Assembly: GCA_958296045.1 (NCBI GenBank)
Contig: CATQHT010000002.1
Coordinates: 620,001 to 684,000 of the forward strand
Source of the DNA: Rhodothermales bacterium
GTDB lineage: Bacteria > Bacteroidota > Rhodothermia > Rhodothermales > Bin80
Direction of reading: 5' to 3'
Length of the DNA: 64,000 bases
The position numbers were made by a program, and so were the translations under genes. Below the pieces are notes generated by a model. That model was not told the DNA's origin. It made no database searches and was given only the letters and a program-made list of their open reading frames with translations. Position 1 is the first letter of the stretch. Each line of letters opens with the position of its first letter. This document shows, one piece after another, positions 32,690 to 59,300 of the stretch.

Positions 32690-33156
32690 TGATCCCACCA
32701 GGGCTCGAACCTGGGACCCTCTGATTAACCTGCCACACCGGCTTTCACCGGCCGCTTGCAACGTTGTGGTCTGGACCATCTCTTCACCCGTTCCCTGCAA
32801 GAATTCTGCATCTGCAGGGGGAGGGTGGGCTGCGTATGGCCTCTGAGGGCTCTCCCGTTTGCGCTATCCGCACGGAGTGCAGCGCGCCAATGGCGGCAGC
32901 GTGCCACTGGGCGGCGCTGCGCCAATCGGAGGTGGCCAGACCTGCGCAGGACATCCTTCAGCAGTCACGGCTGAGGGTGCGCGGCTCCAGCCTACGGGGT
33001 TGCCTGCTGATTACCCACGTATCCTTGACATTTTTACGCGTGACGGCGTAGCCAAGGCTTTAGGGCGTTCCAGCATACAGCAGCCTCCACTTGTACGGTT
33101 TCCCGCACAAGGCTCCATCTTGAAGTCAGATGCTCTACCAACTGAGCTATGGGATC
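32690..33156 (-). tRNA. tRNA-Lys(UUU), interrupted in the anticodon loop
   Basis: The exons are 33123-33156 (34 nt) and 32690-32728 (39 nt) on the minus strand. Joined, they give a complete 73-nt tRNA. The acceptor stem GATCCCA/TGGGATC is perfect and the D arm is GCTCAGTTGGTAGAGC. The anticodon stem TCTGA/TCAGA is perfect with loop CTT-TTAA, so anticodon TTT. The T arm is CCAGG-TTCGAGC-CCTGG and the discriminator A is at 32690. CCA is not encoded. The break lies between U34 and U35 and is filled by a 394-nt intron. The typical GACTTTTAATC core identifies it as lysine tRNA. Confidence 0.92.
32729..33122 (-). ncRNA. group I self-splicing intron in tRNA-Lys(UUU)
   Basis: The 394-nt insertion follows a U at the 5' junction and ends in G, as group I introns do. 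On the minus strand: P1 pairs the exon end CUU with GAG of an internal guide (GGAGCC), with the U-G wobble at the splice site. P2 is a 9-bp hairpin CUUGUGCGG-GAAA-CCGUACAAG. P3 is GGAGG/CCUCC. P4 is UGCUG/CAGCA with joining AA and AAU, and P5 is GCCC/GGGU. P7 is GGUCUGG/CCAGACC. An extended P8 has an added hairpin closed by CCCUGCA/UGCAGGG, J8/7 contains AAGAGAU, and P9 is a CCGG hairpin. The order of elements matches the Anabaena tRNA-Leu intron (IC3 type). There is no room for an endonuclease gene. Confidence 0.88.
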
Positions 33157-58690: not shown

Positions 58691-59110
58691 CGGTATGGAT
58701 TCATCGCGCGGCGCTTGGCCCCCGACTGGGCGGTGCGAGTTCTTGCTTGGTTTGCCTCAGCGAAAGCCACAGCGCGGAGGATGCCATCTACCATGACATC
58801 CAGTCCCAGTTGGGCGCGTGCGAACGCCAAAGCGTTGCCTGCAAAACGCCCCCGGTCATCTAGGATTTGCGTCGCGGCCTCCGCCATGGCTTCAACGCTG
58901 CCGTAGGGCGTAAGGAGGCCGTTTTCGCGAGAGGCGTTAGGTAGTCGATCTGGGGGCTGTGATAATGGATGTGCGGACCAGGAGAGACCAGTGACACCAT
59001 CGGCAGCCCCAACGCGAACGCGTGATTGATCGTGCGCCAGGCTACCTGGTGCCAGTACAGGGAGTGAAAGTCTCCCGATGTGAAGGACTAACCATTCACG
59101 CATCTCCTCG
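58690..59110 (-). pseudogene. glycosyltransferase C-terminal remnant, frameshifted
   Basis: On the minus strand one frame gives HSLYWHQVAWRTINHAFALG and LPMVSLVSPGPHIHYHSPQI (about 59100-58950). The next frame continues ENGLLTPYGSVEAMAEAATQ and ILDDRGRFAGNALAFARAQLGLDVM (58930-58730). The last part resembles the end of GT4/GT1-type glycosyltransferases (NGLLVPYGD...EA). The N-terminal half is missing. A frameshift near 58940 and missing sequence mark it as dead. Confidence 0.55.
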
Positions 59111-59300
59111 AGCCGTGCGTTGGTACTCGCGAGGGTGCAGGCGAAGCGTCGGTAGAGGTGCGGGTGGGCAGAGCTAATGAGCACCGAAAATGCTATTGTC
59201 CGGGATGCCGAGGCTTTGATCTTGGTCGAAGGCAACACCTTCTTCGCCACTTCGCAGGCGCAGGAGGTCGCGCCATGCCTGGCGAGGCATCGGCCGATCC

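What the first reader, a model, noticed from the sequence alone, without database searches (positions are those of the whole stretch)
32690..33156. Group I intron in the anticodon loop of tRNA-Lys(UUU)
Seen directly: two exons fold into a perfect tRNA-Lys with anticodon TTT when joined. The 394-nt insert between U34 and U35 begins after U, ends in G, and supplies P1 with a U-G wobble, P2 with a GAAA loop, P3, P4, P5, P7 (7 bp), P8 and P9 in the order of the Anabaena tRNA-Leu(UAA) intron, which also interrupts between positions 34 and 35. Known hosts I can name among bacterial tRNAs are Leu(UAA), Arg(CCU), Ile(CAU) and fMet; I do not know of a described group I intron in bacterial tRNA-Lys(UUU), least of all in Bacteroidota. 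It carries no endonuclease gene. An intact second tRNA-Lys elsewhere would show whether splicing is essential.
Basis: partly seen in the sequence, partly recalled or inferred. Interest (0 to 1): 0.88.

Follow-up and report, generated by a model that had tools for sequence, protein, structure and literature searches.

The report
Self-splicing intron splits lysine tRNA gene
[quoted passage not shown] the same insertion turns up in two other bacterial phyla and on phages, and it resembles ribosomal RNA introns rather than the tRNA introns known from cyanobacteria.

Summary
On the minus strand, 33156-33123 and 32728-32690 join into a standard 73-nt tRNA-Lys(UUU); the 394-nt insert (33122-32729) lies between U34 and U35. 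Rfam Intron_gpI covers it end to end (35.8 bits, E 2.4e-7, below the curated cut-off of 50). Among 28 homologues from three phyla, all with the same junction, the P1-P9 core pairs in 96% of cells and 14 pairs have compensatory changes. The core groups with 23S rRNA introns (site L1931, called IB4), whereas the fMet and Arg(UCU) introns of the same genome are IC3-like. The intron is in all 16 genomes searched of this Rhodothermales family, and sporadic in Solirubrobacterales and Chloroflexota. It also sits in tRNA-Lys genes on IMG/VR phage contigs, one copy encoding a PD-(D/E)XK endonuclease. No intact tRNA-Lys was found in this genome or in a single-contig relative, so splicing is probably essential. 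I found no published report of a group I intron in bacterial tRNA-Lys(UUU) in the library I could search. Splicing itself was not tested.

The parts
33123..33156 (-). 5' exon of tRNA-Lys(UUU), positions 1-34 (ends ...CTGACTT)
32729..33122 (-). group I intron, 394 nt, starts after U34, ends in G before U35
32690..32728 (-). 3' exon of tRNA-Lys(UUU), starts TTAATCAG (U35, U36, A37, A38)
33113..33125 (-). P1: exon C32 U33 U34 plus intron CA pair with UGGAG; U34-G wobble at the 5' splice site
   Evidence: U-G pair kept in 28 of 28 sequences; coordinates
33090..33111 (-). P2, 9 bp, GAAA tetraloop
   Evidence: 7 of 9 pairs with changes on both sides
33080..33085 (-). P3 5' strand GGCUGC (pairs with 32828-32833)
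   Evidence: 2 pairs with compensatory changes, 100% paired
32828..32833 (-). P3 3' strand GCAGCC
33005..33075 (-). P4 (33070-33075 with 33005-33010), P5 (33063-33065 with 33014-33016) and the P5 extension between them
   Evidence: P4 and P5 pairs are invariant in 28 sequences; extension seen
32848..33004 (-). P6 (33002-33004 with 32848-32850) with a long non-coding extension 32860-32996 that is found in the Rhodothermales copies only
32836..32843 (-). P7 5' strand with bulged A (pairs with 32773-32779)
   Evidence: 7 pairs, invariant in 28 sequences
32773..32779 (-). P7 3' strand AUGGUCC
32786..32826 (-). P8 (32823-32826 with 32786-32789) and its loop
32732..32770 (-). P9.0/P9 region: 32765-32770 with 32732-32737, and hairpin 32738-32751
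   Evidence: compensatory changes in both helices
32572..32659 (-). tRNA-Leu(GAG), 30 bases downstream on the same strand; neighbour of the split tRNA-Lys in every family member whose locus was scanned with ARAGORN

Best explanation
[quoted passage not shown] Inferred mechanism: the pre-tRNA folds with its exon halves paired. P1 forms between anticodon-loop bases C32-U33-U34 and the guide UGGAG, with a U34-G wobble. Guanosine bound at P7 cuts after U34, U34 attacks after the terminal G, and the exons join to restore anticodon UUU. The unspliced RNA has no continuous anticodon, so lysyl-tRNA synthetase and U34-modifying enzymes can probably act only after splicing. By sequence it belongs with the LSU rRNA L1931-type (IB4-like) introns, not with the IC3 tRNA introns. 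It was most likely acquired once by the ancestor of this Rhodothermales family and then inherited; it is now probably immobile, having no endonuclease gene. Shown here: exons, junction, covarying structure, distribution and absence of a detected intact copy. Inferred: splicing, essentiality, direction of transfer.
For: Exon joining gives a perfect tRNA-Lys. RF00028 matches end to end at E 2.4e-7. With 28 homologues, 96.0% of cells pair against 89.8% shuffled and 34-44% when slid; 14 pairs change on both sides against 9.3; P2, P3 and P9 covary. Junction, U-G pair and terminal G are conserved in Rhodothermales, Solirubrobacterales and Chloroflexota. All 16 genomes of the family are split. No intact tRNA-Lys in G000 or among the tRNAs read in the single-contig relative G002. 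The core groups with 23S L1931-site introns of the same order and away from the fMet, Arg and Leu introns. Archaeal L1931 introns are catalogued as IB4 (PMC6125680).
Against: RF00028 stays below its curated cut-off. P4-P8 pairs are nearly invariant, so only P1, P2, P3 and P9 give covariation. No RNA data. No convincing P10 was found by eye. The Rhodothermales 23S introns fall inside the Lys set on a long branch, probably an artefact, so the exact kinship and direction are unresolved. rRNA genes were not found in G000 or G002, so a few stretches of these genomes are missing or masked, and a hidden tRNA-Lys cannot be wholly excluded.
Confidence: 0.93

Rival explanations
1. It is an IC3 intron of the cyanobacterial tRNA-Leu(UAA) lineage that moved to tRNA-Lys.
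For: Same insertion point relative to the anticodon (34/35). IC3-like Leu(UAA) introns at that position exist in other families of the same order.
Against: The core motifs differ, the Lys introns have a long P5 extension, and the tree separates IC3-like rows from the Lys plus LSU set with 100/100.
Confidence: 0.04
2. The intron is decayed and the tRNA-Lys is a pseudogene; lysine codons are read by another tRNA that was not found.
For: The Rfam score is below the cut-off and there is no endonuclease gene.
Against: Exons and ribozyme core are strictly conserved while the P6 and P8 loops vary freely, and compensatory changes keep helices. No other tRNA-Lys is seen in two genomes.
Confidence: 0.03
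3. The intron is removed mainly by host proteins (endonuclease and ligase), not by its own catalysis.
For: None found. Bacteria are not known to have the archaeal/eukaryotic tRNA splicing endonuclease (general knowledge).
Against: The complete conserved catalytic core including P7, the U-G pair and the terminal G.
Confidence: 0.02

Closest known systems
LSU rRNA group I introns at site L1931 (IB4 in archaea, PMC6125680; also Thermotoga, Simkania, Synechococcus C9, PMC1995217)
   Same: Core layout and motifs (P4 TGC.GG/..GCA, P5 extension, CAGAGGCCATACG before P3'); present in the same order of bacteria (L059, L060, L077)
   Different: Host gene is a tRNA, a P2 hairpin is present, and there is no LAGLIDADG gene in the cellular copies
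Cyanobacterial/plastid tRNA-Leu(UAA) intron (IC3)
   Same: Bacterial tRNA host, insertion after U34, no open reading frame
   Different: Different core subgroup and tRNA; the tree separates IC3-like introns from it
Other bacterial tRNA introns: fMet, Arg(CCU), Ile(CAU)
   Same: Group I introns in anticodon loops; this genome has fMet and Arg(UCU) examples as well
   Different: Different host tRNA and position; the two in this genome are of the IC3-like type
I-Ssp6803I intron in Synechocystis tRNA-fMet
   Same: A PD-(D/E)XK endonuclease gene inside a tRNA group I intron, as in the phage copy on L233 (PF11645)
   Different: Other tRNA; the copy in the window has no such gene

Membership tests
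group I introns | conserved P3-P8 core with P7 guanosine site | tested here: met
   RF00028 full-length match E 2.4e-7, below the gathering score; P3-P8 pair in 100% of cells in 28 homologues
group I introns | U-G wobble in P1 at the 5' splice site and terminal G | tested here: met
   U-G in 28 of 28 sequences; G at the end in all extracted introns
group I introns | guanosine-initiated self-splicing with exact exon joining | not testable with these tools
   no RNA data or bench work
IB4-type (LSU L1931-like) introns | core groups with L1931-site introns | tested here: met
   shared motifs; Lys and L1931 rows together, apart from IC3-like rows at 100/100; exact branching unresolved, and no catalogued IB4 reference sequence was in the tree
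IC3 introns (Anabaena tRNA-Leu type) | IC3 core | tested here: not met
   IC3-like rows from the same genomes and order form a separate group; their IC3 label is by motif, not by a catalogue
mobile (homing) introns | endonuclease gene in the intron | tested here: not met
   no such reading frame in the window copy; present in the phage copy L233

The most novel reading that the evidence does not exclude
tRNA-Lys(UUU) is a recurrent home for an IB4-like intron family that jumped from 23S rRNA to a tRNA. Phages that carry tRNA genes spread it between phyla with a PD-(D/E)XK homing endonuclease, and it then became fixed and essential in a bacterial family whose only tRNA-Lys depends on the ribozyme.
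Probability: 0.4. Interest if true: 0.78.

Novelty: new variant of a known kind. Interest (0 to 1): 0.62.

Why it matters
Reviews list few bacterial tRNAs as group I hosts, and one states that phage introns had been seen only in protein-coding genes despite the many phage tRNA genes (PMC3984707). Here a tRNA-Lys intron of the ribosomal type is shared by three phyla and by phages, is missed by standard tRNA finding, and may make all lysine decoding in a bacterial family depend on a ribozyme. Genome quality checks that count tRNAs would score these genomes as lacking lysine. A named strain with a complete chromosome (Svornostia abyssi J379) makes the splicing directly testable.

Tried and rejected
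IC3 kinship: rejected on motifs and tree. A published claim of a group I intron in cyanobacterial tRNA-Lys(CTT) (PMC5733544) concerns inserts of 22-49 nt, far too short to hold a group I core, so it is not a precedent. A remnant of the phage endonuclease in the Rhodothermales P6 extension was sought: the tblastn hits fall on the ORF's C-terminal tail, which overlaps the ribozyme core, so no remnant is shown. Plasmids gave no intron match, and named phages only a 29-base tRNA match. More relatives of the phage endonuclease gene in viral contigs: none beyond itself. No covariance model of my own was built: the intron is long for calibration and the homologue alignment already gave the structural test.

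Full report
Observation. The finding is real at the stated coordinates. On the minus strand the exons 33156-33123 and 32728-32690 join into a 73-nt tRNA with a full set of stems, loop CTTTTAA and anticodon UUU. The insert is 394 nt, begins after U34 and ends in G. ARAGORN without intron search does not see the gene; with intron search it reports Asn(GTT), because one base is ambiguous at the junction. RF00028 matches the insert from the first to the last model position with 35.8 bits, E 2.4e-7, under the curated cut-off of 50 bits.

Structure. I extracted tRNA-Lys introns from 43 loci (29 distinct sequences) and aligned 28. A structure with P1, P2, P3, P4, P5, P6, P7 (7 bp with a bulged A), P8, P9.0 and P9 was counted on this alignment. 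96.0% of cells form standard pairs, against 89.8% with shuffled partners and 34-44% with slid partners. 14 pairs have changes on both sides, against 9.3 expected from shuffles; none of 500 shuffles reached either value. P2, P3 and P9 carry most of the covariation. P4 to P8 are almost invariant and therefore add conservation, not covariation. The U-G pair at the 5' splice site is present in all 28.

Dependence on splicing. The genome holding the window (G000, four contigs, 96.7% complete) has 39 uninterrupted tRNA genes by Rfam. ARAGORN reads none of them as tRNA-Lys, neither UUU nor CUU. The single-contig relative G002 also has 39 uninterrupted tRNAs, and no tRNA-Lys among those read (some of the longer Ser/Leu/Tyr-sized ones were not read). 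In six window genes 71 of 2625 codons are lysine. If the assemblies are representative, all of these are read by one tRNA that must be spliced. A caution: no 16S rRNA was found in either genome, and tRNA-Ile(GAU) and tRNA-Ala(UGC) were also absent from the lists, so some stretches are missing or masked.

Distribution. A search with the spliced tRNA-Lys over 99 genomes of the order shows split halves in the genomes of the family, and introns were extracted from all 16 of them (G000-G015). Outside the family most best matches are full-length or nearly so, and none that I saw in the listed rows breaks at 34/35, apart from a match cut by a contig end. In the family loci scanned with ARAGORN, tRNA-Leu(GAG) is always next to it. 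A pattern from the intron core scanned over the collection of 84,980 species genomes gave 65 stretches. Joining exons puts tRNA-Lys(UUU) introns at the identical junction in Rhodothermales, in Solirubrobacterales and other Thermoleophilia (including the named strain Svornostia abyssi J379) and in Chloroflexota/Anaerolineae. One sits in tRNA-Thr(UGU) of a Patescibacterium. For the rest no tRNA was recognised around them, and most lie near 23S rRNA motifs. In 151 genomes of the order of Svornostia only a few split genes are seen; intact genes dominate the listed matches. So the intron looks fixed in the Rhodothermales family and sporadic elsewhere.

Kinship. The core differs from that of the fMet(CAU) and Arg(UCU) introns in the same genome and from Leu(UAA) introns in the same order. 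It resembles 23S rRNA introns inserted after GGTCCTAAGGT, site L1931 by E. coli numbering (my own count), in this order. In a tree of the shared core the IC3-like introns are separated with 100/100, and the Lys introns of three phyla stand with LSU introns. Archaeal introns at this LSU site are catalogued as IB4, all in rRNA genes (PMC6125680); the Synechococcus L1917 and L1931 introns have been described as IC1-like without P2 (PMC1995217). The placing of the Rhodothermales 23S introns inside the Lys group rests on a long branch and should not be trusted.

Phages. The same core pattern in IMG/VR gave three contigs, and two further patterns gave 46 and 68 stretches. Exon joining shows tRNA-Lys(UUU) introns on L232 (74 kb contig, tRNA cluster), L233 (180 kb contig), L296/L299 (apparently the same intron), L313, L302 and L349, after U34 or U35. 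That these contigs are viral rests on the collection's own call; I checked only a few neighbouring genes by eye. The L233 intron (708 nt) has a 164-codon gene matching PF11645 PD-(D/E)XK endonuclease at E 2.3e-18. The end of that gene runs through the ribozyme core, as described for some LSU introns (PMC1995217). This makes phage-borne homing a plausible route, but no event was shown.

Literature. Papers that could be read name fMet, Leu(UAA), Ile(CAU) and other tRNAs among bacterial hosts (PMC4033280, PMC3984707, PMC8450103), and one counts four tRNA genes (PMC1995217). The only tRNA-Lys report found is for 22-49-nt inserts in cyanobacteria (PMC5733544), too short for a group I core. Most subscription papers and preprints were not searchable, so priority cannot be certified.

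Verdict. New variant of a known kind: a new host tRNA in a ribosomal-type intron lineage, shared across phyla and phages, and probably essential here.

Noticed in passing
L001 (G000:C3:1081635-1081833): The same genome has a group I intron in what looks like initiator tRNA-fMet(CAU), after U33; most family members have one too (in L001 itself the tRNA was read by eye).
   Followed up: partly
L002 (G000:C3:2122611-2122849): A group I intron in tRNA-Arg(UCU) after U36, between tRNA-Pro(UGG) and tRNA-Cys(GCA), present in most of the family and in family f12.
   Followed up: partly
window 59067-59288 +: Rfam group-II-D1D4-6 match, 110 bits; no reverse transcriptase gene recognised among the long reading frames around it.
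   Followed up: no
L233 3567-4061 -: Phage tRNA-Lys intron with a PD-(D/E)XK endonuclease gene that overlaps the ribozyme core.
   Followed up: partly
L231: Viral contig with a similar intron holding a LAGLIDADG-like gene, apparently inside a protein-coding gene.
   Followed up: no
L153: Patescibacteria tRNA-Thr(UGU) with a 517-nt group I-like intron that seems to hold an HNH-type reading frame.
   Followed up: no
L162: A contig labelled Bifidobacterium breve carries a tRNA-Lys intron nearly identical to that of Svornostia; probably a mislabelled or mixed MAG.
   Followed up: no
G000 and G002 whole genomes: No 16S rRNA, tRNA-Ile(GAU) or tRNA-Ala(UGC) found; probably masked or missing stretches.
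   Followed up: partly
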